Shown piece after piece: positions 18,352 to 61,109 of a DNA stretch of 64,000 bases. This DNA is from Ctenosaura bakeri (Eukaryota; Chordata; Lepidosauria; Squamata; Iguanidae). The number at the start of each line of letters is the position of its first letter. The stretch's first letter is position 1. Made by a program: the position numbers and the translations under genes. The notes beneath the pieces are model-generated. The model did no database searches, was not told the DNA's origin, and saw only the letters and a program-made list of their open reading frames with translations. The stretch is taken from positions 459,053-523,052 of the forward strand of contig CAOLHI010000742.1 in NCBI GenBank assembly GCA_948474755.1, written 5' to 3'.

Positions 18352-19192
18352 AAACATTTAGGTATATCCTGTTGATTTAGTGGGTCTAATTTAGCTGGGA
18401 CTAGCAATTTGACTGAGGCTGGGTTTTACTCTTGCGTAGAAGAACAGGACTTTAAAATTCCTTTAAAAACAGGTCAACACATTTTCTGAGTGGTCTTTGT
18501 GAAAAGCCAGTCTTAGGCCACAAAACCTAGAATCTGCTCCAGTATCCAGCTATTTATTCAAGAGCCAAGTAGAGGAAAGTTCAGAATTGGTCAGTTGCTT
18601 TTAAAATAAATGAAATGAGGAATTAGCAAAGTAAGGCTTTGCTATCAAGATACCATAAGATTAATTCACTGAAGTGTCTACCAGGAAAGAGAGAGGCCTT
18701 GGATACCTTGGGAGTATATTATTGACTCTCTGACAGCCATTTAGAGACAAAGGAACATTGAACAACTTCCAGAGAGATTGAAATTCAAACTGAATTTTAA
18801 TGCTTGGAATGACCTGCTTTCTGTATGATACCTCCATATACTGATTGCCTTTAAGGCTGAGTCAGTCTAAGATATGTGGTAATATGGATTTCAGTTTGGT
18901 CTTGCTTGGGCATGGTCTTTAATTCAAACACAGAATTATAAGTTTTTGAATGGAGGGGAAGGTTGAGTTTCATGCAGTGACTACAGAGGGTGTTGAAAGT
19001 GTGTTTTCCCATTCCTAGTTGTTCATCTTCTAGCTTATCTGGACCAAAGTTCCTAGGACCTCCCATTTAATTTTTTTTTTGAGATACAAGACAGAAAAAA
19101 GGAATCAATAGATAAATGGAAATATCATTCTATAGAACAGCACTGTTGCTGTTCAGATTTGAAAAAATATTTGAAAAATATGTTAGAGCAGT
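18352..19192. other. Intergenic, nothing recognised
   Basis: Ordinary AT-rich sequence without coding or repeat signals that I can identify. Confidence 0.4.
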
Positions 19193-19660
19193 GGTTCTCA
19201 ACCTTTCCTTTACCAGGGAACCCCGGCAAATATAATTTGTTGCTGGGGTCTCTAAAGATTAACTCAAGATTTAAATATTTAAATTTATATTCAAATATTT
19301 CTTTATGTATTAAAGACTTCTGGAGTCTAGGATACAAATCCCGGCTCAGACACTTGGGCAAGTCACATGCTCAGCCTCAGAGGCAGGCAAAGGCAAACCC
19401 CCTCTGAGTAAATCTTGGCAAAAAATCCCTGTAATTGATTCACCTTAGGGTTGCTATAAATCAGAAGTGACTTGAAGGCACACAACAACAAAGTTCCGCT
19501 TGCAAACACTTGCCAATGAGGGAGCAGTTTGCACCTACACCCCCCCAGCTGCCTCATCCCTGTTGCTGCTGTTGATGTCTAGTAGCGGGGCTCTGCAGGC
19601 CCCCTGTGAGGGCTTTGCGGGCCCTCAGGGGTTCCCAGACCCCAGGTTAAGGACCACTGT
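19193..19660. mobile_element. Non-autonomous hAT element with a SINE inside
   Basis: Termini CAGTGGTTCTCAACCTTTCC and CCCAGGTTAAGGACCACTG are imperfect inverted repeats. Flanks tgttagag (19185-19192) and tgttaggg (19661-19668) match 7 of 8, the hAT duplication size. The subterminal ggaaccccggcaaa/ggggttcccagacc stretch is also inverted. A SINE occupies 19318-19493. Confidence 0.8.
19318..19493 (+). repeat. tRNA-derived SINE, 5'-truncated, inside the hAT element
   Basis: gagtctaggatacaaatccc, cttgggcaagtcacatgctc, cagcctcagaggcaggcaaa, and tail cagaagtgacttgaaggcac with aacaacaaa. Confidence 0.8.
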
Positions 19661-36617: not shown

Positions 36618-37376
36618 AAGTTTGTTTGCTCCTAGCTAAGTATCTTATCATCTAAATGGAGGACAAGATGATGTCTCTAAGAGCACCCACACTGCATATA
36701 CTCTAGACCAGTGTTTCTCAACTGGGGGTCATATGGCCATCTGGGGGCCACCAGGATATTCCAAGGGAGCCATAGGTGAAAATCGCATAAATGGGGACCA
36801 CGGCATGAGACTAGGGGGCCATAGAGGGAAGTGAAAAATGAAGAAAACAGAGAAGTGACCAACAGAGAAACCCCCTCCCTAAACTGATTATATGTGCACA
36901 ATAGAGAAAAACTTCTTTCTGTTTTGCTTTTGCTTGATAAAAGGAAAATCTTTCTCAAGGCTGCACTGGAGCTGCTAGCCGGATCACTAGTCAGCCTCTC
37001 CAGGTCCACCTGATCAATACTTTTCTCTAGAGGATCGCTCTCTAGTTTGTGGACCTGCAGGCTTTTAAGCGTGGACAGACTGTGCCATCATGGCATGCTG
37101 CTACTGCCTTTGGGTTCTGAACAATCAAAGGGTACTGTAAGCACTGCTGCTTATAGGTTGTTATAGTTGCACCCATGACATCAGTGCCTGCTGCAGCTTC
37201 TGTTCTGCCCCTCATCTTAGAACTACTGTTTCCAACATGGAAACCCATGGAAGCTGCCCCATTAATTTCTCCTGGTCATCAGCAGCTCTTTTTCAATGAC
37301 TGCAGTATGCCTGCTTCTGCTTTTTAATTTAATCACTTGGGTTTTTTAAAACCTTTTTACCAGCTAAAATTTCTTT

Positions 37377-37380
37377 TCCT

Positions 37381-37428
<48 letters not shown>

Positions 37429-37430
37429 TC
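37377..37430 (+). repeat. (TTTC)n microsatellite
   Basis: Uninterrupted tttc units inside the hAT element. Confidence 0.95.
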
Positions 37431-37492
37431 CTTCTTGTAATTTTATGTAATTATATTTTGCTTAAACTATAAAAAATTATAAATAAAACAGT

Positions 37493-37573
37493 TCCCTCCC
37501 AAAACTGCAAACCCCAGGATTCCATAGGATGTTGAAAGTGGAATAATCGTGCTATAATAGTGCAGAAATGGCC
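37493..37573. mobile_element. Half copy of family A MITE
   Basis: Only the right arm: ccctcccaaaactgcaaacc, ccataggatgttgaaagtgg, then tgcagaaatggcc. The left arm is absent. Confidence 0.8.
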
Positions 37574-38119
37574 AGAGAAAGGAAACAAGGTCAGAAGGGG
37601 GCCACGGTCAGAAAAAGGTTGAGAAACACTGTTCTAGACCATAGGATTGTCTAGAAAATAATATTTACGGTAACCAGCCATGTTAGATACGATTGTATTG
37701 TAAATTCCAAGTGGCTGGCATTGTTAATGACTTATTTAGATATAAGCTTCTACACATGCGGACTGAATTCTGAGAACAATGTGCAACAGTCATATCTAGC
37801 AGATGGCTAGTGAAGCACAGTTCCACATGCAGATCAGTTGTGACTGCAGCAGCACAGTCAAGTTCACAGAGCAGTGTGTGAATGCTTATTTGCCTCTGAA
37901 CATTGTACACAGTAATTGTGCAATGGGATGTCACCCACACACATTAACTATTTACTCACATCCATTACACTGCATTGGTATTCAATATCAGGATTGTGTA
38001 ATGCAAGCATAATGTAAGTATTGGTGCATATTTATGTTATGCTAAAAGAGTGTAGGATTTTAACCATTGTGTGTGTGTGTGTTGCTTATTCTTGTTTTCT
38101 CTCCTCTTAGCCTGATAAA

Positions 38120-44208: not shown

Positions 44209-47200
44209 CTATTCATTTAAAAAGATAAAGACAAATTGGTTCAGTTCTGCATTTGTTGTTGTTTTTTGCCCAGTTTTTTTCCTCCTATTTTTATACTGAA
44301 AAAAAAAATCTAAAATTTAAAAAAAAAAAGGCAGTACCAATACTGGAACTGGAATTTTACTTTAGAGCAACAATTTAGCTATGAACAAGTCTAGCTTGGA
44401 CGCCAATCTGCATGTTAAGACTGTTAACAAGAAAAGTGCTGATCACGGCTTAGGGAAGAACCAGAAGCTGTCTTTATTTACAGTTGGCCCTCCATATTCA
44501 CTAGGGTTAGGGCCCAGGACTCCCCAAAAGTGGAAAAATCACAAAGATCAAAATGTTTGTGTGTATTTATTGGGAGGGGGCTGAGGCATGGTGGGGAGAA
44601 TGAGCACCTAGGATGCAAAACCAGGTGAGGGAAAGGGTAAGGAAAAGAGATGGGTTGGCATGGTAGCCCTATACTTCCTCTCTTGCCTGCCTCCTTCCTT
44701 GGGAGTGTGTGGGGCACTGGGAGAGGATTCGTGGTGCTGAGAAATTGGGTTATGATCTGTCCTTAGCTGGCTAGGCAGCGGCTGGTGGAGGAGGAGGTGG
44801 GTGTTTAAAGAGCTTCACTATTCCTTTGGAAAAGTAGCACTTGAGTTGGGGGGAGGTAGCAATTGGAAAAACACACAAATAATCAAATCCATGAAAATTA
44901 AACCCACAGTAGTGGAGGTCTGACTGCATGGTGATTTCCCCCTGCTCTTCTGGTTTTGCAAAGTGTCCCATGCAGAAAAAAATAATTAGGATACAATTAA
45001 AAATGGGCAGTTAATATACACTTTAAAAAAAAGAAAATCAAACAATATTAAAAAGGAAATGATTAATACAGAAGGGACAACAGTCTTCATTTGGCCCTCC
45101 CTTCCCCCTAAGTGATCACTTTATTTAGGGTGGTTCCCACTACAGTGATGGCAAGAAAGTCAAGAAGGCAGAGAGAGCCTTCAGCTGGCCAGTGGAGCAG
45201 GCAAACCACTTCAAGTTCTAATCTGACCCTTAAAAGAGCCACCTAAGCTGCTAAACCTGCTTGAGAGATACGGTTCAGCACTTTCAACAGCTTCTTTAAA
45301 AGTTCAGATTGCCATCCAGAGCAAGCTCAACACTCCCCTTGCAAAGAAGCCACTGGCATGTAACACTTTTTTGCACCAGTTTTTGGTTCTATAGGGGAAG
45401 GTTATTTACATGCTGTTTCAGCTGAGTATGGCTGTAAGAATATGGTGTCAGTTCAGAACATTTTTATACTGACAATGGCCAAGATTCTAGCTTGGCTACT
45501 TAACTACCTTAGTTGTGTGACTAAGTAGCATCTCCTGGCCCAAACCACCAACCCTGGCTTAAAGGTAGCAGCTGCTACAATGGGGATCTGTTAGAGTCTG
45601 AAGCAGGATTCCTGTCACAATTAGCCCTCCCACTGGCGATTGCTCGCAAGAGCGGGAGGAAAGAGTACAGCAGTGTGCTGCATCCCAGTTGACAGGAGAA
45701 GAGACCTCCTTTGCTTGCATTGGCTGCTGCCCAGCAATACTAAAAGACTGGGGGACTTTTATGATCCCTCTAAGTTACACATTTGTAATAGCAATGGTGA
45801 ATTCCAGCCAATATGTTTTATTTTAATAGTAATTTCCTTAGAACTGAGTGGGAAACAGGCAGCGCTATTGTTGGAGTTCAGTTCTTATTAGGTCTAGCCA
45901 GCAGTCCCAATGGTGAGGGATGATGGGAGCTGTAGGACTCAGATGATCTTTAGCTGCTAGAAGTAAAATGGAATTTTGGGACTAGCAGGCCTTTTGATTT
46001 AAGCAGACAAGTTTTTAAGCATTGCCACTCATAGGAGTTTTACATCCCTGTGTTAGATTAATCTTTTGTTTTCTCACCTGTTGTAATTTCAAAAAGGTGA
46101 CTGGCTGACCCATACAAACTGCTGAATCTGGTTTAACAGAGCTGCAAGCAGATCCGAGCACAGGGCTCAGCTGTACAGCTGAATGAATCTGCTGGTGCAA
46201 TTCCCGTGCTTGTAGCTGTGATGAATTTTGAGTAAGGATTGCTGGGGTCCCAATGAAAACAGGTGTTGTAGATGTCAAGCCAGGCATACTAAAATTCATG
46301 CATGCGACGCTTGGGAAGGAGCCAGAAGGAGCAGAAGAAAGTTGGCTTGTTGTTGCTGCTGGAGAATAGATAAGAGGGAGTGGTGCCAGAGCTGTAGATG
46401 GAACCATCATACAGGGAACATTAAGTGAAGGCAAATGGCTTGAAGGTAGGCTGACAGGACCAGGAGCCTGGCTGGCAGGAAGCAGAAAATTAAAACCGTT
46501 TAATCCTGGAGGAAAGAACAGAAGCAGATAATTGCAATTAGAAAGATACCTTGTGTCCCTTCTCTCAAGGAGGAAGGTTTCGGAATAAGGTATCAGTGAG
46601 AAGCTGAGATTAATTGATCACTGTTAACAGTTTGCTTTTTTACGTATAATTTCAGACTGTTAGTTCGAGTCAGGAGATAGAAATGTTTGTAACTGTCATT
46701 ACACAACAGAGGGTGATATCTAAAATGATCATGCAGTAGAGTTCCAAGAATCTGGACTCACTGTTTTAAAAGACAGTAAGTTGACAGCACTTTTATCAAG
46801 CAGACTGAATGATCCAGCAGTGGATGATGTGATACCTTTTCTTCATACTGACTGAGACTTAAAAGAAAATATGTGGGAGACAGAAAAGTCACCTTTCCCT
46901 TCCAAAGGAGCTTGTGGGGTGGGAATGGATCCGGGCTGTAGTTCTGTCTCTTTCTCCCCACAGTCTAAAGAAATTTCAAATGTAGTATTTTGTTGGAATG
47001 ACAGGTAAAGAACAGCTTTAGAGAACTGGTCTGCTGGTAAAGAAGATTTATGTTGGAGAAATGATACTAGGGGAAAAAATGACCCCTCCCCATCACTCCA
47101 TCCTACATCAAAAGAATCAACCACATCTCTCCCTTCTTAATTAGTTTGGTCTTTGTTGTAATTCTTTTAAAGTTGAAGTGTAAAGCCTACATGTCATTTA

Positions 47201-50200
47201 CTCAGATGTATGCCCAAGGGACCCTCAAGGGACTTACTCCCGTGTATAGAACTGCAGTCAAGGGGTTTTTATTGAAATGCCTTGCTATTATTATGTGTGA
47301 TTAGTTTGGCTTTGGCCATTTCTGCACTACACCGTTATAGTGCTATTATTCCACTTTCAACATCCTATGGAATCCTGGGGTTTGCATTTTCCAGAGGGGC
47401 TGCAAACCCCAGGATTCCATAGGGTGTTGAAAGTGGAATAATAGCACTATAATGGTGTAGTGTGGAAAGGCCCTTTGAGTTATGTTGACCCTATATAGAC
47501 AAGGGACCTCCAAGAGATCCTGTTATTAACAGCAGTAGTAGAGAACAGCACTGGCACTTTAGCTAACTCTAGTTACTGCTTCCCAGAAGGCGGCTCTAGG
47601 AAACCACTTCTACATGTCTTTATCTTGAAAACCCCCTGATCAGATTGAAATGTCAACCTAGGAATCAATGATTGTACTGTAAGGCATGGCCTTAAATTCT
47701 CTTTTAGTATTGACTAGAGAAGACCCATTTAATCTACCATATTTTGTCTCACCATCCAATAACAGATTCAATGGGTCTACTCTAGTTGGATGCCAGCCAT
47801 TGTTGGAAAATACATTCCAGTTAGATGTTAAGAGTATATTTTTAGAGTGGTCTTTACCAGTTGTAGGCTGTACATAGAAATATTGTGGTAGGGAGGGCTG
47901 TTTGTCATTTTCTTGAGAAACCTGTTCATTTTCTTTTGTGCTTTCTTTCAGCTCTTTACTTCTGTATGGCTTGTCTTGCTCCCATGATCCTAAGGATTTA
48001 GCTGTATCTTGCTCCCATGATCCTAAGGATTTAGCTGTGTCTCTTATGGCAGCTTCCAGAGCAGCAGAAGTCCCTGATTCAAGCTGAAAGCCTCTTAGCT
48101 GGTCAATGGGACTGCAGTTACAATCTGGGGAAGATTCTGTGTCCACGGGCTTAATGGTCTTCTAAGAAAAGAACAGAAAGAGAAACACAAATCATCCTCC
48201 TCTTCTTAGAGATGCAGCTCTATGGGAGGCTAGGAAAATAACATGGTACAACTTCTAACTAGCCTTGAAAGGTTAAAAACTGAAGCTGATAATGGGATAA
48301 ATTATTCCTGAAACAGCTTTCCTAATAAAAGTCCTCCCACTTCATGATTTCTTTAGAGCAAAACTACACAAATGTCTGTTGTTTTTTTCTTCCATGTTGC
48401 CTACTGGAAGTTCATCCATGGAACTGGCAAAAAAATGAGCAAAACTCTAGTTTGTGTTTCTGAGTAAGAAACAACAAACAAAAACCAGAGGTTTAGATGG
48501 ACTGTTACCTTTTTCTTTGGATGACTTGGCAAAATACTTTTGCTCCTGCTTATAGGTTGATTACCCCATTGTCCTTGGGGAAACTGACTTGTCCTTCACT
48601 GAAATAACAAATCGTGAGTAATTTGCAGCATACCTGTCGAATTATGAAGGCTATTTTATGGAGTAATTGGGGATTAGATGGAGATTTGAATAAGAAGTGG
48701 GACCAAACAATCTTTTGAATCCTTGTTGCCTCAAAGGGGAGAACTAGGTCTAATGGTTTTAAGTTACAGGAAATTGTTTTCAACTGAACATTAGAAAGAA
48801 CTTCGTGACAGTGAGAGCAATTTGGCAATGGAACCAATTGCTTAGAGAGATGGTGAAATCTCCTTCTCTGGATGTCTTCAAATAAGAGACTAGCAGGTAC
48901 CTGCCAAGGATGCTTAAACTGGAGATCCTGCATTGTGTAAGGCAGTGGTTCTCAACCTTCCTAATGCTGCAACTCTTTAATACAGTTCCTCACGTTGTGG
49001 TGACCCCCAACCATAAAATTATTTTTGTTGCTACTTCATAACTGTAATTTTGCTACTGTTATGAATCGTAATGTAAATATCTGATATGCAGGATATATTT
49101 TCATTGTTACAAATTGAATTAAAGCATAGTGATTAATCACAAAAACAATATGTAATTATATATTGTGAAATATTTATTTCTAACTACAAATAAATGAAAT
49201 TTTGTCTTGAAGCATGGTGTAGCATGGGTAACAGCCTTAATATAAAATAGTAAACTACATTGCTACATTTTGTGACAGTATGCATAAAAAGCCAACGCCA
49301 GTGCGGAGGCTGAGATTGCTTCTTTCTCACCAACATCCTTTAGGAAAAATACAAAACAATGCAATGGCAACATTTCTCGTGGACTTCTTCTCTTGTCTTC
49401 TGAGAAGTACAATTATCATAGGCCATGCTACTTTTCTCAAGCTTGAAAAAACATATGGTAGTTCCTAAAGATTCAGAGGCCAACTTCTTGCCTCAGATAA
49501 GGAAGTGTACAGAAAATATAATTGTTTTAATTCTGCTACATCTAAAACAGTGTCACAGTATTTTACTGTTATGATTTCCATGTACTGTAGTTTTAATATA
49601 GTATTTTATCTCACTTCTTTCCTTCCTAGAATTCTTATTCTGTCCTGTGTTTTCAGTACTATTACAAACATGGCTGGAAATCTCTTACAAAGTTTACTTT
49701 TACAAAAAGGCAAATAAATGTAAAAGACATATTGCTTCAATAATAAACAAAAAAGAAATAGTGACAAGATGCCATTTTCATGTGTCCTGTATGCATATTT
49801 TTCACATGTCTTGCAGAAATTCAACAAAGGTTCCACAATGCCAAACCAAATGGGTTGGATCCAGACACCAGCAAGTGGAATTCCAGTCAAAAAGACTGCT
49901 CGTTGAAGGGGGATAGTAAAGAGATCACTTTTACTGATTTCTTCTTCCCATCACAGCTGTGTCATCTGCTCTACAACACTCTGTAAAGCAGGCTGTAAAG
50001 TAGTGCAAAAGGAAGGAAAAATCAATGTAAATTGCAACCCCTTACTCCTTCTTTCATCAGTTTTTTTTTCCACAAACAAAAGGAATCTCTTCAAATAGAA
50101 CAAGAATTCTGGTTCAAAGCCAATATAAGAGTCAGTCTGCCCATTAATACACGATGCAAGTGTATTACATGTTTATTTAATTTCTAAAGATCAGCACTTA

Positions 50201-53200
50201 TAACCATTCATTTAATTTCTACTCTTGGAAAGCTCAACCTATCCTATGCCACAGCATTTACAGGGCTAACACATTGCAAGCAATGCCAGTATACAAGAAA
50301 AAAAATCTCGGATCCACATTTGCAATGGATCTCCCTTACTATTCTCTTAAAACTTTCATTTAAAAAAAAGGATAAAAGGGTTGCCTTCTCTTCTTCTGTT
50401 AATATCCAGTCCCATACACATTTTCTGAGTGAACCCCCGGGAGAGTGAGCACGGTGGAGGGCTGCGGCTGGCTAGAGACGGGGCGGGAGGAGGGAGCTGA
50501 GGAGGGGCTGGGGGCTTGGGGGACCAGGCGCTCACACCCGCCCTCTCCCCTTCACTCGCTCCTCGCTGCCCCCCTTCTCTGGCCTCCGCTGGCCACCGAG
50601 GCCCGGCCCTCTCCTGCCGCCTCCCTCCTGGTATGGCAGGGGCGGCAACGCGGCGGCATGTCCCGCCTCACCCCCAGCCCCTCGCGCGGTCGCTCCCAGG
50701 CACGGCCTGTGGCCATGTCGGCCGTGGGGCTGGAGCGCTCCCCAAGCGAGTGCACGCGCGTGCAGTGAGAGGGGCCTGACAGGCCGCGTGGCCCCTTCCC
50801 CTCCCGCAGGGAAGGGAGCCACGATATTGCCCTCCCTCCCTGTCGCTGTGCCACGCCCCCTGGGGGTCACTTCCATGACAGCGGGCCCCGCGTCCGGCCT
50901 TCCCCGCATGCCGGACCAGATGGAGGTGTTGGATGTGGTTCACCCCCAGCTCGTACTCGACCATGGCCAGCTGCACAGCACACAGGCGCTTCGCCTCGCC
51001 GCTGCCACCGCCGTGGCCGTCATCTCCATCTTCGCCCGCCTCCTCGGAGCCCAGCAGCTGCTTAATGCCTTCGAGCAGCTCCCGGGCATTATACTTGGAG
51101 CAATAGGGCTTGGTCTCCAGGTCCTTCTTGGACTCCGTGTACGAGAGGTTGAGGGCGCCATGGAACTTATCACAGATCGAAGCCCACTCCGAAGGCGCCG
51201 CCATTTCTTCCGTCGCTCGCTCGGCGGCCTTTCTCTCAGCGGGTTTTAACGGTGCCCACTCTCACCTCTCCTGTTGGCTAGTTCACATGCGCAGTCAGAG
51301 AGCGTGAAAGGAAATGGGCTCCTGCCGCCATGACTTTCTTCCCTTAGTTAAAATGGGGGCGAGATGGTTTGGGAGCGTCAGAAGCTCAACCTGAGAAGGG
51401 CTTGAAGCGAGGACAGAAAGGACACGGTCCCCCAGAACGTTGTTAAAATTCTATTTTCCACCATTCTGGTGCCTAAAGCTAGTGGGAATTACTGTATAGT
51501 GCAACAGCAAGCTCTAGACTAGGTGTCTCGGTTCCTAAGACCATTGGAAATATGTGTTTTCCGATGGTCTTAGGCGACCCCTGTGAAAGGGTCGTTCGAC
51601 TCCCAAAGGGGTCATGACCCACAGGTTGAGAACTGTTAGTGTAAGTGTTTGAGTCTGATGGCCCAAGAGGTCCCTTCCAGCTCTATGATTTTATGATTCT
51701 TCTAATTCTGGGAGGCCACAGAGAATAATTATTTTCTTCTTTCAACTCAGGGGCCATTGTACTTTTTCAAGATCAGTTCATAGTCATCTGCTACATGTCT
51801 CTGTGGTGACTTTTATAGCATATGAAGGAAAATATGTATCTGAAACATTCAGTAAATACATGCTTAGAAGCAATGACTGTCTAGGACCTCCAGCTCTCCA
51901 TATACTATGTTTTTCCAGACACATGTTGATCCACACGTTGGTTAATGTGCGGACAAACAGGAATTAGATTTTTTGAATATGTTTTCCAATACTATGTGAA
52001 TGCTCACATTTAAAGTTAATGCAATGCTAGAAATTTGGAGACTGAAGGAAATTTGGGGGGGGAGAATTCTTATGGGGCGCAATGCTGTCGTTGTGCCATC
52101 CCCAAAGACTATTTCAACAATACTTTTCTAATTTCTCCCATTGTGATTGTGAGCAAAAAGCCTTAAGCATTGGCCTAGCATTAGGAATTGGCTTAACAAA
52201 GAATTCTCTTACCTTATCTAGCACCAGTGAAATGGGTTCTTCATTCTGCTCCAGGCCTTGCCTTTTTGTTGTAGGTTCCTCAGCAGCTGAACTTGTGATG
52301 GAGGGGGCATGCTTCTGAGAACTTCTCTTCCGACTGTTAACAGGAGACACAGAAGCTTCTGATAGGCAGGGTGAATCTTGGCCCTTACAATCTCCATTTC
52401 CCTTTTCTTGAAGACTTTCACACGGGAAATTGTCATGAAGACTGCCACATAGCATATAAAGTGATGCAGATGGCAAGTATACGAAAGGCTGATTGGGGAG
52501 CACAGTGGCTTTCCTAGTCTCTGTGTTGGAAGCTGACAGACTAGACAGTGGCAATGCTTGGTCATATGTTCCACTGGTAAGAGACATGTTGGAAGTCGCT
52601 TTTGAAGGGAGGGGAGGGAAGGCCTTAAGACAATAGTCTGAGTCTCCAGAAACAGGAAGAACGGAGAAGGGTGAAATGACGCCCAGGTTTCTTGTGGCTT
52701 CAAAACTTTTGCTACAAAGATGAAGGAAACAGTTAGACTAGAGCCATGGCACAGTCAACTCTTCTTAGCCTAACCCACCCAAACATCTAAATTTGGATAC
52801 GTTTTCTATTATTTGTCTGAAAATTCATAAGCTTCCCTTCATCAAAAGGTATCAGGGTGATGAACAGTGAACATATAATAAAAATAAAGAATACAAACAT
52901 AAAGCAACAATAGTAAGGCTGTAAAAAACTATAAAACAGACAGAGCAGTTTGAAATTCCCAGATAAACACAAAGATTTTGACCTAGCACCAAAAGAATTA
53001 TACGATTGTCATCAGTTACACATCCACAGTGACAGTGTTCCACAAATGGCCTGCCACAGTAGTGAAGGCACTTTCCTCAGCTGCCATACTACCAGCAGAA
53101 GGCACTTTAAGAAGAGTGTCATCTTAAGTCACAGGCTGGCTGGCACAGAGAGATGCATTCTATCAGGTATTTGGATCCTGCACTATTTATAAATATTAAC

Positions 53201-56200
53201 AGATAAGGAACTGGCGCAGCTTTATTAGGATTGGTGTAATATGAATCCATCTAGTCATTTCTCTTCATATTCTAGCCATCTCATTCTATAGTAGTTGAAG
53301 CTCACATGTTATCTTCAATGTAGCTATAAACAACACACCACGGACCATTTACCAACTATCCTTTGATAACAGCACAGCACTGCTGTGCTTCTGAGTTCCT
53401 TGAAGAACCTCCAAAAGGAACGATGAGCTTTCTTAGTGAACTTGGGAGGAAGTGTGCAAGTCCATTCTGTTTGCTATGATTTGTGCGTGTGTACTGCAAG
53501 TCCAGAATCCAGTCAAATCTGGGAGTATCCACACAGGAATGGCTACTCTACCCCATGAAATTCTTTGTGAATGATAAACTCTCTCTCAGTAACTCATATG
53601 CATTGCATATCCCAACTACAGGCTCCACGCCTAACGTACATAAGATGCACAGGAGCCACAGTTTGGTAGGTTAAACCAAATATTAAGGCAGAACATAGTT
53701 TTTACAGATTGTTACATGAAAATCTTAATATACCTTGTGTTATCCTCCATCTTCTGACAGCAAACAGATGCAAGATTTATCATTTTGGAGCAGTAATCAT
53801 CTGAAGAATGAAGGAAAAGTGGAACAAATCACTAATAGTGAAGCTTATCTTTGTACTGTGTGAAGAGCAGATGCACAAACATCCAGTTACATCTTTGCTA
53901 AATGGCCAAGAGATGTGAAAAGTCAAGGAGAAGACAGTATCCTGCAATCTCTTTTGTTACAAGGAACCAGAAGTAACACCTTGATCATTATTGATTTTCT
54001 ACACTGCCTCATGATCATTCCTTTTGTTCCCTTTGACAACCCCTATTTCTAGGCCAGCAACATATCTTTGTATTATAACTATTATCTGACAGCTACACAG
54101 TTTCCTGCTTTGTCCTTCCCTAATACTTCACATCGTCCTTATCCTCCCAGAACTGAGCATCCTGCCTTTTAAACACGGCTTTACAAAACAGTCTATATAG
54201 AAATACAAGAATTTGTAAATTTTGGTTGATCGTGGTGGTCAGCCAACCTATATGCTTGCCAGGATGCTCTGATCACTATGCTTGGAGGCATCCCAACCCC
54301 CATGGAAATCTAACGTGACTGTGAGAACAATAATCTGCTGCATTACAGCACTTTTGTGCTTCCAAACAAAGTCCTAGCTGATTCCTGCTGAGCTTAAGAG
54401 TAGGGAAAAAGACCATCCTTTGATCATAGCGCAGCAGGGCTGTGCTTTCGAGCTCCTTAAAGAGCCACCAAAGGAACAATGAGCTTTCTTAGTGAATTTG
54501 GGAGGAAGTGTGTTAGGATTGCCCCAGGAATCTTACTGTGCTTTAAAGGTGCTCTGGTGGCTTGTAGTTATAGCGACATGATGTTCCATCCTGTTTTTCA
54601 GGCCTAAGCCCAGCAGAAGGGCTGGAGCTTGTTAAATTCATTGAAGTGAAGGAGGGCAAGGATGCTCCATGGCTTTCATGGTGAGTGAAGATGTAAATCC
54701 CTAAGAAAACTGGAGCCTGGAGTTCAGAACGAATTCTCTGTATTTTATAGCTCAGTTCTGTTCTCCCATGGAACTCATACTCAATAACAGCGCACAGATT
54801 TTGGAGCACTTAATATACCAGGCCCGCTATACACTGTGCCCCATGCAGAGATACATCCATTGTCAAAGAATTCTAGTAAGACCTTCAAATCACTTTATAA
54901 AAACTTTACAGTGCTAAACTGTGAAAGCACTATAAATGAGATTGTTCCAGTGAGTTCCATCTTACCAGGAACCATAAAATAATATTCTGCCCTTCCATTT
55001 AGAGGGCATTACTGTCTGCCAAATTCTAACAAAAGAAACACAGTTTAAGCTGGTGCACAGGAATGGATTTACCAAGAAATACTATGGATGTAAACTAGAA
55101 GTTATAGATAGAGCACTGTTGGAAGGGTGCAAGTCCTGCAACTATTACCTTGTTTTCCTCTGCGTGGGCTGCTGGGCTCAGAGTTGACCTTCCTCTTGAC
55201 CACTTCAGAAGGCTGCACAGTGTTGAAAGAAGCATGACGGGACAGCCGCTCTTTTTTAGCAGCACACGCCTGGCGTGGAACATGTGACGCCCCCTTCATT
55301 TCTGTTAAAGCAGCATAGGTTGAAAGGTCCATCTTTATGTCACCTAAACAAACAGATTCTTGTTAGGTTAGCTAGTCAGTGGATAAACAGAGCTTAGAAA
55401 AGCTACTTTTTTAGACTGTAGTTCCCAGAATCCTCCATTAGCATGACCAGCTGTAGTTGTCCCTCCAAAGGAATTTTTCTGAGCTCTGAAAATAATCCAT
55501 AGTCATTGTATCACTTACCATGCCACAAAAACAGTGGATAAATCTTAAAGAGATGCTTTCTATTGTCCAGAAATTAACATTCTACACTGGAAAATAAATT
55601 ACACCTTATTCTAACAAATTTCACACCAAAATCCATTCACCTAATTCCCAGCTATCTAGGCAACACATAGAATGGTAAAGTGTCTCTTTGTTTTACATCA
55701 GTATGTCATGTACATAATGTCAACTTGTGTGCCAAGACTACTTGTTGATTAAATATTGTGGCCAACGTTCAACAACATGCTTGTGAAGTGTGAATTTATA
55801 TTCACATAGTCAAACTGTGGTGCTACTACAACACCTGTCCTTGAATACAGACATTGGGCAACTGATTACATATCTGCCATTCTGTTTCTTCTATGCAAAT
55901 GGAAATATGCAATGGCTGTTCCTGCAATCCCAGTGGATCAAATGGCAGCCTGAAAGCACTGGCAAATATTTATGACCCTTCTAAGAATGTGCAACTGCAT
56001 GGGAAACAGTTACACCTGAGGAAATCTGCTTATACAACCAAAAGCTGAACATATTCTGTTGCACAGCAGCCCAAAAAAGTAGAACTGCATGTGTCAGGCA
56101 ATTTATATGTTAGCAAGACATCAACCGGACTGCAGCCTCTCTGTGCTTCATTTTCACATATCAGCTTGCTAGGTCAAACACTTTGTTTCCTCCTGGCTTG

Positions 56201-59200
56201 ACATGATGGGAGTCTTGGCACACTATATGGACAGTAAATTAGTTCTATTAGTAAACAATCATTAAAGCCATACATATAACAGAATAGTTATCACCCAAAG
56301 AGACCTTTGGTGGAGGGGTACCCCCATATGGCATTTCTGTAGTGTTAAGGACTTGGTTTTCTGTTGACCTGTGCCTGGATGTTATGAGGTTGCTTTTACA
56401 CAGATCTAAAAAACAGTTTAGGGCTATCTGGTTTGCAAGGATCAGGTATGACAATAAGACACTCACAGGAAGGATGTATTATAAAGAAAATTACCATTGT
56501 CACTATTGAATTCTACAGGCCCAATCCACTTGAAAGCGGGCTTACGTCCTCTCTCTTCTGTTACGTGCACTTTCTTTATGAGTCCAAGGCTTGTCAAGAC
56601 GTTGGCAATATCATATAATCTTCGTACCTTTGCTGAAAGGAAAGTTGTTTAAGTTCAAATGTAATATTACATTTAAAAGAAATGCTAACTAATGAGGCAA
56701 AAGAAGTGCTACCAAAACCTTGAAAAATATAGAAAACATGTATAGAAATAAAATGTTTCTAAGCTGTTTGGGATGGGTAGGTACAGACTGAACTCTTACT
56801 CTGACCAGTAGCTGGACTCCCTAGCAAAATTAATATAGCAATTATGAATAGTTTTATCTATGAAACACTAGTGGTAATAAATAGTAATAATAATATTTCT
56901 TATCCACCTCTCCCCAAGGCTCGAGGTGGGGTACAACATAGATTAAAATATGAACTAAATACAACTTAAAATACAACTAAAAACACATAATACACCAATT
57001 TAAAATTCATAATTAAAAACTGACTGGGTAGGCCTGCTGGGAAGAGAGTGGGGGTTGGACTCAATGGCCATTGTAGTCTCTTCCAACATTGTGTTTCTAT
57101 TTTTTTTTAAAATTCAGACAGCACGTTTAGCTGTTGGAACTCTTCCAGCAGGTCATTCCACAGTCAATGGGCAGCTGACAAAACAGTCCTCTGGATGGCC
57201 ACTGCCAGTCTAATCCTGGTTGGTTTAAGTATATGCTCCCAAAGGACCTGAGTATATGGGACGGATTGTATGGGAGGAGGCAATCCTGCAGGTAACTTGG
57301 AACCAAACCATGTAGAGCTTTGAAAGTAATAACCAACACTTTGTACTTTGCCTAGAAACTAACTGGCAGCCCCTGGAGTGATTTTAATATTGGTGTGATA
57401 TACTCACTCCTTGGTGTACCTGTAATCAATCTGGCTGCCATATTTTGGACCAGCTGGAGCTTAACTGGGTACAAAGGTAGCCCAGTGTACAGCACATTGC
57501 TTAAGTCCAACCTGGAGGTTACCAGCACTACCATCTTTAGGTTTTCCAATTCTAGGAATGGCTGCAGTTGGCGTATCAGCTGAAGCTAATAACAAGCACT
57601 CTTGTGTGTTGCATCTATCTGAGCTGACATTTGGGGGGATGGATCCATGAGCGTTCCCAAACTGCAAACAAATTCTTTCAGGGGGAGTTTGACCCCATCC
57701 AGAATTGACTGACACATTTCCAATCCCAAATTAGGACCCTTAATAGTAAGCACCTCTGTCTTCTCTGGATTCAATTTCAATTTGTTTTTCTTCATCCAGC
57801 TCATTACCTTCTCCAAGCATTCATTTAGAGGAGACGTACTATCCCTAGCTAAGACTGATTTTGAAGGCATGGAGAAATATATTTGGGTATCATCAGCATA
57901 CTGATAGCACCCCATCCTATACCTCTGGATGACCTCTCCCAATGATTTCATGTAGGTGTTAAAAAAGCACTGGGAATAGAATGGCACCTTGAGGTATGCC
58001 ATATAATAGCTGCTTTTTTGAGGAGCAGCTATCCCTGAGCATCACCATCTCAAACCTGCCTGAGATGTAAGAATAGAGCCATTACAACACACTGCCTCTG
58101 ATCTCCCCCCACTCCCCTCCGTTCCAGAAGGACACCATGGTCAATGGTATCAAACACCATTGAGAGGTCTAAAAGCACTAACAGGGACATGCTCTCCCCA
58201 TTACTTTATAAAAACGCGTAAGACCACTATTTTATATTATAATCCTTGAATACAGTCTGCTACTATATAAGCTAGGCAAACAACAACCAGAGCTTGGACA
58301 CATTTATTTTAATCAATGAGGACTGCAGTCTCTTTGAAATATATTAATAATCTAATACATGGCAATAAATTTCAACTGGAGCTTTATGTAATACCATTGA
58401 AGTCAGCATTACAGGAGATGATGCCATTTATCATTTTACCATTTAGTTTCATAATCATTTATCTTGAAGGCACAATGGCCAAGTACTCAGAAGCACATAC
58501 ACACACCCCTCTACCTTCAGTGCAACCCAAGGTTTTAACTTGGCCCCTGTATGACCTGATAATTATTTTCATGGAAGATACTTCCTTGAAGACTCTAAAA
58601 CAGCAAATATGCTATCTGGTTCTTTCTGTATGGCAATTATGGTCCCCAGCAACCGAATGATTATTCACCCCTCAGAAATAATTCTTACTTTTAAACTTGC
58701 TGTGATCTGCTGTATCCTGGCTTTCTTCTATCAGTATTTTTGCTGCTATGTCGAGAGTGACTATCTTGGTCTTTGAGACGAGGAACAGCATGACAAATTT
58801 TTGGCTCATAATCCTCAATGACTTGTCCTTTCTGCTGTTTGCAGCCGCTGTATTACAAACACAACCCAAATCTCAGCATGTTACTTCTATCACAGCCAAG
58901 AAAGCATTATGAAGGTTTCTCACGCAGGATTTTTTAAAAAACAAACAAAAAACATTTCCTTGTTGGAAAGCAGGTTTTTTTAATGAGCAGAAAATAATTG
59001 CCGGTAACAGATGGACAGTTGCACTTTAATTGTCTTCAGGAGAGTACAATAAAATGATATCTTGAAGACCTGCACTTGGAAAGTTAGACATCCTGGGCAG
59101 ATTTTATCTATGCAGAGTACTAGAGCAAAGAAGACTGAAACCAGACTATGTGGGTTATGTTCCAGAAAGTTGTAAAATGGGAGGCCAGCAAGAAGAAGCA

Positions 59201-59669
59201 AGAGAAGGACCAAATGTAATGGACTGGGACAGCAAGTGAGAACAATGACACAAAACTTGATTATGATATAGTTAGTGGAAAAAGGAGGGTAATCTTAAAA
59301 GATTGTTTTTTGTGTAGTAATTTGGTTTAAAATTAAAAAAAAATCTTACACTGATGACAAGAATCTGTACTTTGCCAATACCTTTAGCTAACTTACCAGA
59401 CTGACAATCTGTCTCTGAGAAGTCTTGAAAATCTAAAAAGGCCTCCTTTTTATGCTCTCCAAATCTACAGTCAAGGTCTAGCTCTTTATGTTGGAAATAA
59501 GCCATAAGTTCTTCATATTTTTGCAGCTCTCCTATTTCCTGGAGGTTTTTCAGAGTCTGACTCAAGCTATGCCGACCGTGCCAACAATACTGATTCTTAG
59601 CCACTCGACTAACAAGATCAAGAGACTCTAGGACATTCACTATGTCATAAATTCGCCTGCGTTCAACTC
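44032..59669 (-). CDS. E2F7: E2F7, atypical E2F transcriptional repressor (nine exons, 5' part outside window)
   Basis: Joined minus-strand model, in transcript order: 59669-59397, 58847-58689, 56632-56495, 55343-55149, 53800-53734, 52711-52213, 48161-47858, 46505-46078, 44208-44032. All introns are GT-AG and the phases connect without a break, giving about 745 codons to a TAA stop. E2F7 is a nuclear repressor of E2F target genes in S/G2. Unlike classical E2Fs it carries two winged-helix DNA-binding domains and needs no DP partner. Visible here: the end of domain 1 ([19 protein letters not shown]), all of domain 2 ([48 protein letters not shown]) and a Ser/Pro-rich tail ending in the conserved FFKTPGSL and QRRLEI blocks. 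E2F8 was considered, but [16 protein letters not shown] and [10 protein letters not shown] fit E2F7. The start codon and the first part of domain 1 lie beyond base 64000. One odd feature is an 11-codon tandem duplication in the tail. Confidence 0.95.
44480..44927 (-). mobile_element. Tigger/pogo-like non-autonomous DNA transposon
   Basis: Ends cagttggccctccatattca and cagtagtggaggtctgactg form imperfect terminal inverted repeats next to TA. The whole interior matches 24847-25337 in inverted orientation, including the tccttagctggc and ggtagccctatacttcctct stretches. It lies in the last E2F7 intron. Confidence 0.65.
45485..45715. repeat. Unclassified dispersed repeat, shared with 3270-3480
   Basis: The part with ctacttaactacc, gtgtgactaagtagcatctc is a direct match to 3275-3330. 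The part around 45640-45715, read on the opposite strand (tctcctgtcaactgggatgc), matches 3380-3480. So one arm is inverted relative to the other copy. Confidence 0.45.
46078..46505 (-). CDS. E2F7: E2F7 exon: Ser/Pro-rich C-terminal tail
   Basis: 428 bp, ending in phase 0. The acceptor is CTTTCCTCCAG|GATTAAACGG and the donor TTACAACAG|GTGAGAAAA. It begins [20 protein letters not shown] and holds [34 protein letters not shown] and [16 protein letters not shown]. These parallel the LNGFNVLL, SVPCMVLPS, PVLYSPA, VNFSLPGL and VYVGHPVSVVKLHQ blocks of vertebrate E2F7. Low-complexity, presumably disordered. Confidence 0.94.
47314..47472. mobile_element. Palindromic foldback MITE, family A
   Basis: Left arm ggccatttctgcactacac and right arm gtgtagtgtggaaaggcc enclose ggaatcctggggtttgca and its inverse. 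Flanked by exact cttt on both sides (47310-47313, 47473-47476). It lies in an E2F7 intron. See the family copies at 393, 7520, 15440, 17696, 17927, 29046, 30636 and 37493. Confidence 0.85.
47858..48161 (-). CDS. E2F7: E2F7 exon with an 11-codon tandem duplication
   Basis: 304 bp. The acceptor is TTTTCTTAG|AAGACCATTA and the donor ACAACTG|GTAAAGACC. It encodes [20 protein letters not shown] and, at the end, [20 protein letters not shown] then YFYVQPTTG, which match the KENE..PSLxQYxxVQ block of E2F7. In the middle the peptide [11 protein letters not shown] occurs twice in a row, encoded by two adjacent 33-bp units (47974-48006 and 48007-48039) that differ only at the last base. Confidence 0.92.
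47974..48039 (-). repeat. 33-bp in-frame tandem duplication in E2F7 coding sequence
   Basis: Unit tcttgctcccatgatcctaa plus ggatttagctgt(a/g), twice. Sixty-five of 66 bases fit a perfect duplication, so it is recent or kept homogeneous. Confidence 0.97.
48690..48942 (+). repeat. CR1-type LINE 3' end, left part (split by the hAT element)
   Basis: Plus-strand CR1-like 3' UTR: a stretch with ttacaggaaattgttttcaac, tagaaagaacttcgtgacag and ggatgtcttcaaataagaga, then gagatcctgcatt. It is interrupted at 48943 and continues at 51647. Confidence 0.7.
49260..50439. other. AT-rich interior of the hAT element, origin not recognised
   Basis: About 1.2 kb between the SPIN-like left end and the CpG block. 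Only short, unconvincing frames occur on either strand and none resembles a hAT transposase. The minus strand has AATAAA near 50170 and a 3'-UTR-like composition. It may be intron or UTR cargo, or decayed transposon interior. Confidence 0.4.
50440..50931. other. GC- and CpG-rich block of unknown origin beside the KIFBP fragment
   Basis: Strongly GC-rich, in sharp contrast to the AT-rich DNA on both sides. Open frames exist on both strands (for example + 50788-51249 and - 50668-51204), as expected for high GC, and none gives a recognisable product. A good donor-like GGGGGTGAGG lies on the minus strand at about 50672. The block could be more KIFBP gene sequence in rearranged form, or a second captured CpG island. 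Confidence 0.5.
50932..51204 (-). pseudogene. KIFBP-like first exon fragment carried in the hAT element
   Basis: From ATG at 51204 the minus strand reads [20 protein letters not shown], then [32 protein letters not shown], an acidic/Gly spacer, and [16 protein letters not shown]. This matches the N terminus of KIFBP (KIF1-binding protein, KIAA1279, a TPR-type kinesin regulator): the W..(V/I)C(E/D)KF..AL pattern, KPYxSKYxARxLLE, and AVxLAxxExxLGVNHI. Similarity stops abruptly after GVNHI (50932), where DTEELSAGEEHL should follow and no splice donor is seen. The frame stays open to 50668 through unrelated GC-rich sequence (178 codons total). Human KIFBP and E2F7 lie on different chromosomes, so this is a moved copy. 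The 5' UTR and promoter are present, so it looks like captured genomic DNA, not a retrocopy. Whether it is expressed cannot be told. Confidence 0.8.
51205..51310 (-). promoter_or_regulatory. CpG-island promoter region upstream of the KIFBP-like ATG
   Basis: GC-rich, CpG-dense sequence directly upstream of the ATG, with an NRF1-like GCGCATG on the minus strand near 51287-51294 and no TATA box. This is a typical housekeeping promoter layout. The initiator-like purine-rich GCGACGGAAGAAATGG surrounds the start codon. It sits in the middle of an E2F7 intron on the same strand as E2F7. Confidence 0.5.
51647..51702 (+). repeat. CR1-type LINE 3' end, right part
   Basis: Continues the CR1 3' terminus (gatggcccaagaggtccctt, then tatgattttatgattct). 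Joined with 48690-48942 after removing one copy of gtgtaag, it restores the usual CR1 ending, which independently supports the hAT boundaries. Confidence 0.75.
52213..52711 (-). CDS. E2F7: E2F7 long exon: central repressor tail
   Basis: 499 bp. The acceptor is CATCTTTGTAG|CAAAAGTTTT and the donor CTAGATAAG|GTAAGAGAA. The joined frame begins [20 protein letters not shown] and later holds [20 protein letters not shown], the best conserved block of the E2F7 tail. Near the end EEPTTKRQG and PISLVLDK also match vertebrate E2F7. Another open frame over the same bases is a shadow; it contains no E2F7 block. Confidence 0.93.
52860..53733. other. Rest of E2F7 intron, nothing recognised
   Basis: Ordinary AT-rich intron sequence with only short spurious open frames. 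The introns 53801-55148 and 55344-56494 likewise show no clear repeat, apart from a scrap near 55410-55465 resembling a common squamate dispersed repeat. Confidence 0.5.
53734..53800 (-). CDS. E2F7: E2F7 short exon
   Basis: 67-bp exon too small to appear as an open frame by itself. The acceptor is CATTCTTCAG|ATGATTACTG and the donor GATAACACAAG|GTATATTAAG. In the joined frame it reads [23 protein letters not shown], matching the short E2F7 segment (SLxIGSLAAVYRQKIEDNS-type) between the [10 protein letters not shown] block and the long tail exon. Phases 1 and 2 on its two sides match the neighbouring exons exactly, which is the main support. Confidence 0.85.
55149..55343 (-). CDS. E2F7: E2F7 exon: linker after DNA-binding domain 2
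   Basis: 195 bp, phase 1 to phase 1. The acceptor is TTGTTTAG|GTGACATAA and the donor AAACAAG|GTAATAGTT. It encodes [20 protein letters not shown] and further on [20 protein letters not shown] and [14 protein letters not shown]. RHxSFNTVQ and [10 protein letters not shown] are conserved E2F7 blocks. The basic/Ser-rich composition suggests a regulatory linker (inference). Confidence 0.93.
56495..56632 (-). CDS. E2F7: E2F7 exon: recognition helix of second winged-helix domain
   Basis: 138 bp. The acceptor is CTTTCAG|CAAAGGTACG and the donor GACAATG|GTAATTTTC. Translation: [20 protein letters not shown], then [20 protein letters not shown] and EFNSDN. It carries the second RRxYD motif (RRLYD) and the [13 protein letters not shown] block at the end of domain 2. 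The first codon is completed across the splice site. Confidence 0.95.
56880..58203 (-). mobile_element. L2-type LINE, 5'-truncated and frameshifted
   Basis: Reverse-transcriptase remnants in several frames on the minus strand: [20 protein letters not shown] near 58200-58130, [18 protein letters not shown] (with the catalytic YADD box) near 57920, [20 protein letters not shown] near 57420, and [20 protein letters not shown] near 57300. These are L2/CR1-clade RT and C-terminal blocks. The 3' end runs into a TAA-rich tail at about 56880. It lies in an E2F7 intron in sense orientation and is dead through frameshifts and stops. Confidence 0.85.
58689..58847 (-). CDS. E2F7: E2F7 exon: start of second winged-helix domain
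   Basis: 159 bp, phase 1 to phase 1. The acceptor is GTAATACAG|CGGCTGC and the donor TTTAAAA|GTAAGAATT. It encodes [20 protein letters not shown] followed by [20 protein letters not shown] and [13 protein letters not shown], the first helices of DNA-binding domain 2. The sequence is close to identical to vertebrate E2F7 here, which shows strong constraint. Confidence 0.95.
59397..59669 (-). CDS. E2F7: E2F7 exon: C-terminal part of first winged-helix domain
   Basis: Ninety-one codons, first exon in the window. The acceptor reads TATATCCAG|GAGTTGAACG and the donor CAGTCTG|GTAAGTTAG. It begins in phase 1 (the last base of the preceding exon completes a Gly) with [20 protein letters not shown], the recognition helix with the RRxYD DNA-contact motif shared by all E2Fs. 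[20 protein letters not shown] follows. The rest ([17 protein letters not shown] onward) is the linker between the two DNA-binding domains. A decayed copy of bases 59519-59607 is found about 1.6 kb upstream in the same intron (see 61110-61200). Confidence 0.95.
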
Positions 59670-61109
59670 CTGGATATAGAGACAAAAGAAAACAAAGAGA
59701 ATTAAAGCATAACATCAACGTCCTTGGAAGATTACAATAATGCAGGTTCAGACTTCCAAGTGAAAACAATTATACTTACTGGTTCTAACATCTACTGGCT
59801 ATTATGAATACCAGCAACATAGACAACACATGTCAAAGTGCTACAATTTCGGCTTGGCTGAAATTGATTTACTTCATACAGGATAAAAATAATGTCATAT
59901 TACAACAGAAAATTGGTCCCTTAGAGACCACTTTCCAGAGGAGAATTGTAAGAAGCATTCCTGTATGTCACTTCTTATCACAGTGTTTAAGATGAGTTAC
60001 CAGACTCAAACCAAATGCTTTGTAGATCATGAACTTACCCCATCCACTCATTTTACTCATCATGATGTCAATCAGAAGAGGAAATTATAGATAATTGTAG
60101 CTTCTGGACAGTTTTAAATTCCTAGCACAATGGCATCCCATAATCTTCTTGGGCAAAGAACTTAGGTGACAACAGGGAACCAATATGGTGCTGTTGGATT
60201 AAACAAAATTCTATCTCTTTCAGTGAAAACCACTGGTTTCTAAGGGAGGCCACCATCTTCCCCTTTCTTTCTTTTTTTTGACTTTGGATTGTGGGGGAAT
60301 TATGTTGGTGTAACTCTTGGTTAAGCTGGCAGTGTATTCTTTCCTTGCTTGCATAAGGAGGCATTTAATACCTCCTTACTTAAGTAGTTCCCCATTCGCC
60401 TGCAGTTCAATAGCCTCGCTTAACATAGTTTTACACAAAGTGGTGGTCATTGGTCTGGTGCCAGTCCCTGAGCCATTGACTGCTGGTCCTGTAGATTTTC
60501 TTGGAAAGAAAGATAGACACAATGGACACAAATATGATACCAGTTCCTGGCATGGGAGAAGGGGAATTGTTGGTTCCTCATATCAGATAGCTTGAAATGC
60601 AATGGCTCAATGGATTGTCACAACCTCACTCGACTAGAACAGCCACTGGAACACAATGCCTCCACAATTGGCCTAAGGCAACAATCCTGTATAACAGAAA
60701 TGAGCAATGCATGGCTTTCAGATAGCACTTCTTTGCTGCCTTCCCTAATGGTGGGTTACCTACTTCTTTAAGGGGAAAAAAAGGAACTTTTTACTGTTAT
60801 CACACCACCACATTTTGGAGGCTACAGTGGAAATTTTAAAACAAACATAAGCTGTGGCAGCAATGTGCAATTCCCAGTGGCTTGCAGGATGAGGATTTAT
60901 TGGGGTAACCTCACACCCAAGAAGTTGCTCACCTTTGCTGTGTACAACTGCCAGAGAGTAAGCCACTCAGACTTCAGTGTAACAATGAGGGTACATGCAC
61001 AAGACTGCAAAGCTAGTAACGTTTCACTTGCAGTAGTGGCTTATTTAGCAGCTTTGGCTGAAGTGATTTATGCACATATAAGAATATGAATGTGCGTGAT
61101 CATCTAAAT

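What the first reader, a model, noticed from the sequence alone, without database searches (positions are those of the whole stretch)
48943..51638. SPIN-like hAT transposon that captured the promoter and first exon of KIFBP
Seen: hAT/SPIN-type ends, 7-of-8 target duplication (gtgtaagg / gtgtaagt), a CR1 split cleanly at those borders, and inside, a 91-codon match to the KIFBP N terminus with CpG-rich upstream DNA. Known: SPIN elements moved horizontally between tetrapods, and autonomous copies are about this long with a transposase. Inference: the transposase was replaced by host gene DNA, a Pack-type hAT. Such gene capture is well known in plants (Pack-MULEs) but rare in vertebrates, and in a horizontally mobile family it could have spread a host promoter.
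Basis: partly seen in the sequence, partly recalled or inferred. Interest (0 to 1): 0.88.

Follow-up and report, generated by a model that had tools for sequence, protein, structure and literature searches.

The report
Jumping gene family carrying KIFBP promoter
A cut-and-paste transposon in this reptile-like genome swapped its own transposase gene for the promoter, part of the first exon and part of the first intron of the host gene KIFBP, and copied that cargo to dozens of places, which makes it an unusually prolific vertebrate example of a transposon carrying host gene DNA.

Summary
Window 48943-51638 is a 2696-bp hAT insertion (8-bp duplication, 7/8) in a CR1, with KIFBP DNA inside. A protein search of the window's own genome found one intact KIFBP exon 1 and 47 further loci, none running past residue 92; 32 of them reach residues 86-92. 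Of 26 copies with both ends located, 20 have their own 8-bp target duplication at 7/8 or better (control mean 0.9). The cargo runs from 326 bp upstream of the ATG into intron 1, with the exon-1 tail and splice donor replaced by about 500 bp of other CpG-rich DNA. The same genome holds a 2850-bp relative with matching ends and a 548-codon hAT transposase frame; window-type copies join cargo to that gene's last codons. Copies form several structural types, one with exchanged ends. They lie about 2% from their consensus, evolve neutrally and lose CpGs, so no function is evident. Multicopy Pack-hATs are already described in vertebrates (Tan 2021), so this is a large new member of a known kind. Horizontal spread was not testable, and the name SPIN is recalled.

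The parts
48935..48942 (.). left 8-bp target site duplication gtgtaagg
48943..49332 (+). left end of the hAT element (element positions 1-390), 95% identical to the left end of the transposase-bearing element L050; overlaps the start of the cargo match by a few bases
   Evidence: the left 385 bp give 1812 candidate places in the genome, 40 scored, those 40 at 94-100%
49301..49333 (-). remnant of the last codons of the transposase gene (..[11 protein letters not shown]); cargo joins here
   Evidence: (window and 5 other copies) against P0090
49328..50203 (-). captured KIFBP intron 1 (parent positions 8801-7945), 93.2% identical
50225..50425 (-). captured KIFBP intron 1 (parent positions 7769-7571), 92.0% identical
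50426..50924 (.). about 500 bp of GC-rich DNA shared within the family, not aligning to the KIFBP locus; replaces the exon-1 tail, splice donor and start of intron 1; source not found
50925..51204 (-). 5' part of KIFBP exon 1 from ATG to ..VNHTDT (parent wording); window copy has an 18-base deletion and a 1-base insertion relative to the parent
51205..51521 (-). KIFBP 5' UTR and upstream (promoter) DNA, up to 326 bp upstream of the ATG in the parent
   Evidence: promoter activity not tested
51522..51638 (+). right end of the hAT element (117 bp); a 112-bp match to L050 is 93% identical
51639..51646 (.). right 8-bp target site duplication gtgtaagt
48752..51700 (+). CR1 retrotransposon copy split by the insertion (pieces about 48752-48942 and 51647-51700)
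48165..52214 (-). probable intron of an atypical E2F (E2F7/8-like) gene that holds the insertion; cargo lies in the sense direction of this gene
   Evidence: E2F_TDP domain at 59275-59769 minus, E 2e-13; gene name and intron borders read by eye, inferred

Best explanation
This is one copy of a multicopy, non-autonomous Pack-type hAT family. A SPIN-like hAT element lost nearly all of its transposase gene and gained in its place, in the same orientation, a piece of the host gene KIFBP: about 326 bp of promoter DNA, 99 codons of exon 1 and about 1.1 kb of intron 1, in which the exon tail and splice donor were replaced by about 500 bp of another CpG-rich sequence. Shown: the capture structure, the shared junctions, the separate target duplications, the parental gene and a transposase-bearing relative with matching ends. 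Inferred: the capture happened once, by template switching during repair or replication at a hAT element, and the chimera was then moved in trans by the relative's transposase. It amplified in a burst and split into structural types, one of which (D) carries the same cargo between partly different ends. The copies then decayed neutrally with CpG loss, so the spread promoter DNA is most likely silent today.
For: Own-genome DNA search with the interior: 80 matching pieces (40 of 452 candidates scored), including 7 near-full copies at 84-87% besides the window. Protein search: 66 of 66 candidates scored, 60 matches; 1 locus (C193) runs to residue 124 and is open; by my count 47 other loci, of which 32 reach residues 86-92, 15 stop earlier and none goes further. 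Parent: further KIFBP exons lie in order on the same contig, and neither element end was found there. Distinct duplications: 20 of 26 copies at 7/8 or better, control mean 0.9 and maximum 4 over 200 deals; T at position 4 in 20 of 20 and A at position 5 in 19 of 20. Flanks unrelated apart from 3 repeat-like matches among 40 flanks. Shared junctions in the 14 copies compared with the parent: all 9 A/B/C copies start at 6287 (L023 at 6304), the 7 without the B deletion end at 8796-8801, and 13 of 14 resume the intron at 7562-7573 (L021 has a further deletion); the exon break after ..HTDT was read directly in L013, L015, L016 and L023. Transposase relative: L050, 2850 bp, exact duplication CATTAGAC, 548-codon frame; more copies at 87-93%, two open over nearly the whole frame. 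Transposase end codons at the cargo joint in the 6 copies printed. Burst: 16 A/B/C copies mean K2P 0.018 to consensus; A/B/C against D consensus 0.005. Neutrality.
Against: Six of the 26 copies with located ends lack a 7/8 duplication (L010, L014, L020, L022, L033, L040). The hAT domain match of the transposase is slightly below Pfam's curated cut-off (19.1 against 21.4 bits), and no solved structure matched at 0.01. The source of the 500-bp GC-rich segment was not found (40 of 52 candidates scored). Mobilisation in trans by the L050-type transposase is inferred, not shown.
Confidence: 0.94

Rival explanations
1. Single-copy gap filling in place: an old hAT copy in this intron was broken and patched with KIFBP DNA, without later movement.
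For: This is the commonest origin of Pack-TIRs in animals according to Tan et al. 2021 (PMC8277862, sections 7 and 8 read).
Against: The same chimera with the same joints sits at many loci with own target duplications.
Confidence: 0.02
2. Segmental duplication or retrocopy of KIFBP into or beside transposons.
For: Multiple KIFBP fragments exist in the genome.
Against: Cargo contains intron and upstream DNA, not spliced mRNA; flanks of the 20 copies tested are unrelated apart from three repeat-like matches; borders are hAT ends plus 8-bp duplications.
Confidence: 0.02
3. The cargo is under selection, as a coding sequence that helps the element or as an active promoter kept as a CpG island.
For: The block is still the strongest CpG island of the window, and the window copy lies in the sense direction of an E2F-like gene.
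Against: 32 copies: change rates at codon positions 1/2/3 are .219/.201/.199 at CpG and .050/.040/.030 at other sites, so positions 1 and 2 are not spared; synonymous 264, non-synonymous 517, stops 10 against neutral simulation 293 (sd 13), 487 (sd 13), 11 (sd 3); 14 of 32 copies frame-broken. CpG o/e fell from 1.01 in the parent to a mean of 0.77 in 31 copies.
Confidence: 0.08
4. Type D copies arose by an independent second capture from the KIFBP gene rather than by exchange of ends.
For: D shares with A only about the first 87-97 element bases on the left, has a variant right end of about 72 bp and has narrower cargo limits, parent 6396-8789.
Against: D shares the foreign GC-rich segment and the C-type insert, and the D and A/B/C consensuses differ by 0.5%.
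Confidence: 0.04

Closest known systems
Multicopy Pack-TIRs of vertebrates (Tan et al. 2021, PMC8277862), for example Pack-hAT-N8_XT in Xenopus tropicalis carrying 291 bp of CAPSL 5' UTR
   Same: hAT ends, host 5' gene DNA inside, several copies with different target duplications, GC-rich cargo (sections 7, 8, 9, 12 and 14 read)
   Different: The two cases whose copy number I saw have three and five copies; here 47 loci, a cargo span of about 2.5 kb of the parent plus a second GC-rich source, several structural types and exchanged ends
SPIN (Space Invaders) hAT family of tetrapods (recalled; Pace 2008 and Gilbert 2012 not held)
   Same: Start of the inverted repeat, 8-bp duplications, autonomous length near 2.8 kb and abundant non-autonomous derivatives agree with what I recall
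   Different: No published SPIN consensus could be compared here; gene cargo in SPIN is not something I recall
Pack-MULEs of plants and Ssk-FB4 of Drosophila (from PMC8277862 text)
   Same: Non-autonomous terminal-inverted-repeat elements carrying gene fragments or upstream DNA, sometimes amplified
   Different: Other transposon superfamily and hosts; Ssk-FB4 keeps a nearly whole coding gene with signs of positive selection, this cargo is truncated and neutral

Membership tests
hAT superfamily | 8-bp target site duplication with a central TA preference | tested here: met
   20 of 26 copies at 7/8 or better; T4 20 of 20, A5 19 of 20, T2 17 of 20
hAT superfamily | short terminal inverted repeats | tested here: met
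   CAGTGGTTCTCAACCT at the left, inverted at the right with decay in the last bases of the window copy
hAT superfamily | hAT transposase in an element with the same ends | tested here: met
   L050: 548-codon frame, Dimer_Tnp_hAT E 0.0011 (19.1 bits, below the curated cut-off of 21.4), and further copies
SPIN family | sequence match of ends and transposase to the published SPIN consensus | not testable with these tools
   consensus not held; papers not held; resemblance recalled only
Pack-TIR (Pack-hAT) | host gene DNA between transposon ends with an identifiable parental copy not flanked by the transposon | tested here: met
   parent C193 exon 1 open, with later exons; no element end found in L025
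Multicopy Pack-TIR | several copies of one chimera with distinct target duplications | tested here: met
   47 loci, duplications
Multicopy Pack-TIR | no unfilled transposon at the orthologous site in relatives (FoSTeST prediction) | not testable with these tools
   no related genome held for this window (note)
Processed pseudogene | introns absent, no promoter DNA | tested here: not met
   cargo includes intron 1 and upstream DNA

The most novel reading that the evidence does not exclude
In this genome the SPIN-like element repeatedly exchanged its transposase gene for host CpG-island DNA, each time in the transposase's place and keeping only its last codons, so that promoter trapping is a recurrent mode of this family rather than an accident, and a horizontally mobile transposon spread host promoters genome-wide. 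Two families fit this layout: the KIFBP family and the L051-L053 family, in which about 443 bp of the same left end, including the last 26 transposase codons, are joined to a foreign interior with a GC-rich block towards the right end. The origin of that second interior is unknown, so it is not shown to be a host promoter.
Probability: 0.25. Interest if true: 0.8.

Novelty: new member of a known kind. Interest (0 to 1): 0.58.

Why it matters
Captures of host genes by cut-and-paste transposons are listed by the hundred in animals, but amplified ones were four in the survey I read, with three and five copies in the two whose numbers I saw. This one gives one capture with 47 loci, its parent gene, a transposase-bearing relative and several descendant types in a single genome, so the order of events can be reconstructed and the fate of a spread promoter measured. 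It also shows a CpG island of a host gene being distributed by a family believed (recalled) to cross species, which makes the question of horizontal transfer of host promoter DNA directly testable in other squamates.

Tried and rejected
Tried without result. Pfam and the protein database for the AT-rich interior: no family above cut-off in 8 frames, no protein at E 1 for one frame; since explained as KIFBP intron DNA. Solved structures for one interior frame: none. Rfam on the window: none. Viral contigs for two exact end patterns and for KIFBP exon 1: none. Source of the 500-bp GC-rich segment: not found; four places in that list (C2314, C244, C515, C7914; 71-73%) were new to me and not examined. 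Pfam on four frames of the L051/L053-type interior: none at cut-off. Papers: none hold KIFBP with transposon or KIAA1279 with transposable element; none hold SPIN, hAT transposon, horizontal transfer and gene capture together. (SPIN with tenrec and Anolis) also returned none, so this library is thin on SPIN. Searches were read as listings only; (a 16-base end string) gave two unrelated mouse papers; in PMC3621081 I saw one passage, a reference entry.

Rejected. In-place gap filling, segmental duplication and retrocopy (see rivals). Coding constraint on the cargo. An early idea that the window's odd residues alone show decay (5 of 12 explained by one CpG change) was superseded by the 32-copy test. 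The hAT-like pairs at 19189-19659 and 36709-37631 did not match the element.

Dates. I give divergences only. With a recalled squamate neutral rate near 0.8e-9 per site per year, 1.8% would be about 20-25 million years; that rate comes from no call.
Full report
OBSERVATION. The window holds a 2696-bp insertion at 48943-51638 with inverted ends CAGTGGTTCTCAACCT (the right end decayed in its last bases) and flanking 8-mers gtgtaagg and gtgtaagt. Joining the flanks with one 8-mer gives a CR1 that aligns through the joint to another CR1 of the window at 30633-30456 (76% over 181 columns, E 9e-29). The minus strand from 51204 encodes the N terminus of KIF-binding protein (solved chain 6zpg, E 6.9e-14; two database proteins at 67 and 59% identity). 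The block 50431-51480 has CpG o/e 0.71 against 0.20 for the whole window.

COPIES. The interior (window 49300-51500) searched against the window's own assembly (1.905 Gb, 8006 contigs) gave 80 matching pieces (40 of 452 candidates scored, so a lower bound), among them seven near-complete copies at 84-87% identity besides the window. A KIFBP exon-1 protein (P0002) searched against the same genome gave 60 matches with 66 of 66 candidates scored. One, C193:598980-599387, covers residues 1-124 without a stop. Counting pieces at one place once, I count 47 other loci (59 matches minus 12 doubles): 32 reach residues 86-92, 15 stop earlier, none goes beyond 92. The exon break lies at residues 84-87 of P0002 (..HTDT). 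Two of the 47 (C6788, C7415) have identical scores and may be one place assembled twice. Five fetched stretches carry family DNA but are not in that list (L017, L022, L038, L040, L042).

I fetched 37 stretches. One is the parent locus (L025). In 26 sequences, the window included, both ends could be placed. Twenty have an 8-bp duplication at 7/8 or better; the misses are L010, L014, L020, L022, L033 and L040. Dealing the left 8-mers to other copies gave a mean of 0.9 and a maximum of 4 (200 deals). The 20 duplications have T at position 4 in 20, A at position 5 in 19 and T at position 2 in 17, which fits the hAT pattern that I recall. Their 40 flanks gave three cross-matches of 77-82%, which look like shared repeats.

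PARENT AND CARGO LIMITS. On contig C193 the KIFBP gene has exon 1 and further exons in order (tblastn with KIFBP proteins: two frogs, a bat and a catfish span more than exon 1). Neither element end was found in L025. I compared 14 copies with the parent. The nine A/B/C copies begin 326 bp upstream of the parental ATG (position 6287; L023 at 6304). The seven of these without the B deletion end in intron 1 at 8796-8801. Thirteen of 14 resume the intron at 7562-7573, and L021 has a further deletion there. Exon 1 breaks after ..HTDT, read in L013, L015, L016 and L023 (the search failed on L030), and the intron resumes next to a shared AAAATGGG. Between these points the family carries about 500 bp (399-670 in 23 copies) of DNA with GC 0.79 and CpG o/e 0.88 in the majority sequence. 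It does not align with the parental stretch that it replaces (score 26; shuffles mean 21, maximum 29). A genome search with it found only pieces at 70-81% besides itself and no better-matching source (51 matches; 40 of 52 candidates scored).

TRANSPOSON BODY. The left 385 bp of the element has 1812 candidate places in the genome; the 40 scored match over the full length or nearly so at 94-100%. I fetched four of them. L050 is a 2850-bp element with exact duplication CATTAGAC, the same ends and a 548-codon frame (P0090) on the minus strand with a weak hAT dimerisation match (E 0.0011; 19.1 bits against a cut-off of 21.4). P0090 gives 86 matches in the genome (79 of 674 candidates scored); besides L050 itself two places are open over nearly the whole frame at 92-93%. 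The window element matches L050 over its first 390 bases (95%) and over 112 bases at the right end (93%). In the six copies printed (window, L011, L012, L016, L021, L023), the cargo joins at the codons ..[11 protein letters not shown] that end the transposase frame. A tblastn with P0090 at E 0.001 gave no hit in 38 sequences (the window stretch and 37 fetched stretches, the parent among them). So the transposase gene was replaced, in its own orientation, by KIFBP DNA.

SUBFAMILIES. A: window type, 2.65-2.79 kb. B: shared deletion of element positions 133-546 in four copies (L013, L014, L015, L018). C: an extra 0.7-1.4 kb near element position 1262 in several copies. D: 14 stretches (L029-L042) with element 1-87 or little more at the left and, where examined (five copies), a variant right end of about 72 bp and cargo limits near 6396-8789. 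Those D copies that cover it have the same foreign GC-rich segment. The insert of four D copies is related (81-88%) to that of C. D therefore descends from the same chimera but sits between partly different ends. In a 695-bp intron part, 16 A/B/C copies lie on average 0.018 (K2P) from their consensus and 14 D copies 0.026 (one, L040, 0.071). The two consensuses differ by 0.005, and from the parent by 0.034 and 0.036. If rates are equal on all branches, this puts the capture a little before one amplification burst; that is inference.

FATE. Over the 297-bp exon part of 32 copies, changes from the copy consensus do not spare codon positions 1 and 2 (CpG sites .219/.201/.199; other sites .050/.040/.030). 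Synonymous 264, replacement 517 and stop 10 compare with 293, 487 and 11 in a neutral simulation; the small deviation is opposite to coding constraint. Fourteen of 32 copies have a frame-breaking indel. By contrast, 7 of the 9 differences between consensus and parent are at third positions, as expected if they arose mostly in the constrained parental gene. CpG o/e of the promoter-exon part is 1.01 in the parent and 0.61-0.91 (mean 0.77) in 31 copies. The cargo behaves as dead, methylation-exposed DNA (inference). The window copy lies in the sense direction of an E2F-domain gene, but the cargo has lost the KIFBP splice donor and nothing here shows transcription.

COMPARISON. Tan et al. 2021 (PMC8277862; outline, sections 7, 8, 9, 12 and 14 and passages read) report 370 Pack-TIRs in 100 animal genomes, 208 of them hAT, with four multicopy cases in frog and alligator, and note that multicopy cases tend to carry GC-rich cargo. 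The present family belongs to that kind by each feature that could be tested. It differs in scale, in carrying a two-source cargo and in the exchange of ends. SPIN is named from recall only. The claim of horizontal spread could not be tested because no relative of this genome is held.

Noticed in passing
L051, L052, L053 (C67:81700-85400, C2165:179100-182800, C364:855200-858900): A second non-autonomous family with the same ends and 7/8 or 8/8 duplications: about 443 bp of the transposase-bearing element at 98-99%, including its last 26 codons, joined to a foreign interior with a GC-rich block (GC 0.60-0.65, CpG o/e 0.37-0.69) towards the right end; very abundant (9343 candidates, 40 scored). 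Origin of the interior unknown.
   Followed up: partly
G000:C4447:55126-56769, C710:49553-51118, C1103:694022-695059: Further copies of the hAT transposase frame without internal stops at 92-93% identity (C710 covers residues 25-548, C1103 only 203-548).
   Followed up: no
window 19189-19659 and 36709-37631: Two other hAT-like insertions with inverted ends similar to but distinct from the element studied.
   Followed up: no
window 46018-59769, minus strand: Probable exons of an E2F7/8-like gene; the KIFBP cargo lies in one of its introns in sense direction.
   Followed up: partly
parent KIFBP intron 1, C193 near 598055-598231: About 150 bp present in the parent and absent from the type A copies, flanked by similar sequence on both sides, perhaps a later retroposon insertion in the gene.
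   Followed up: no
L023, L027, L029, L030, L035, L036: The insert of about 0.55-0.75 kb near element position 1262 is shared by types C and D (81-88%) and did not match the 40-kb parent region; its identity was not determined.
   Followed up: partly
L024 and L045 (C3977:107661-110076 and 114740-115313): Probably one family copy split by a later insertion of about 4.7 kb, since the two pieces cover complementary parts of the element.
   Followed up: no
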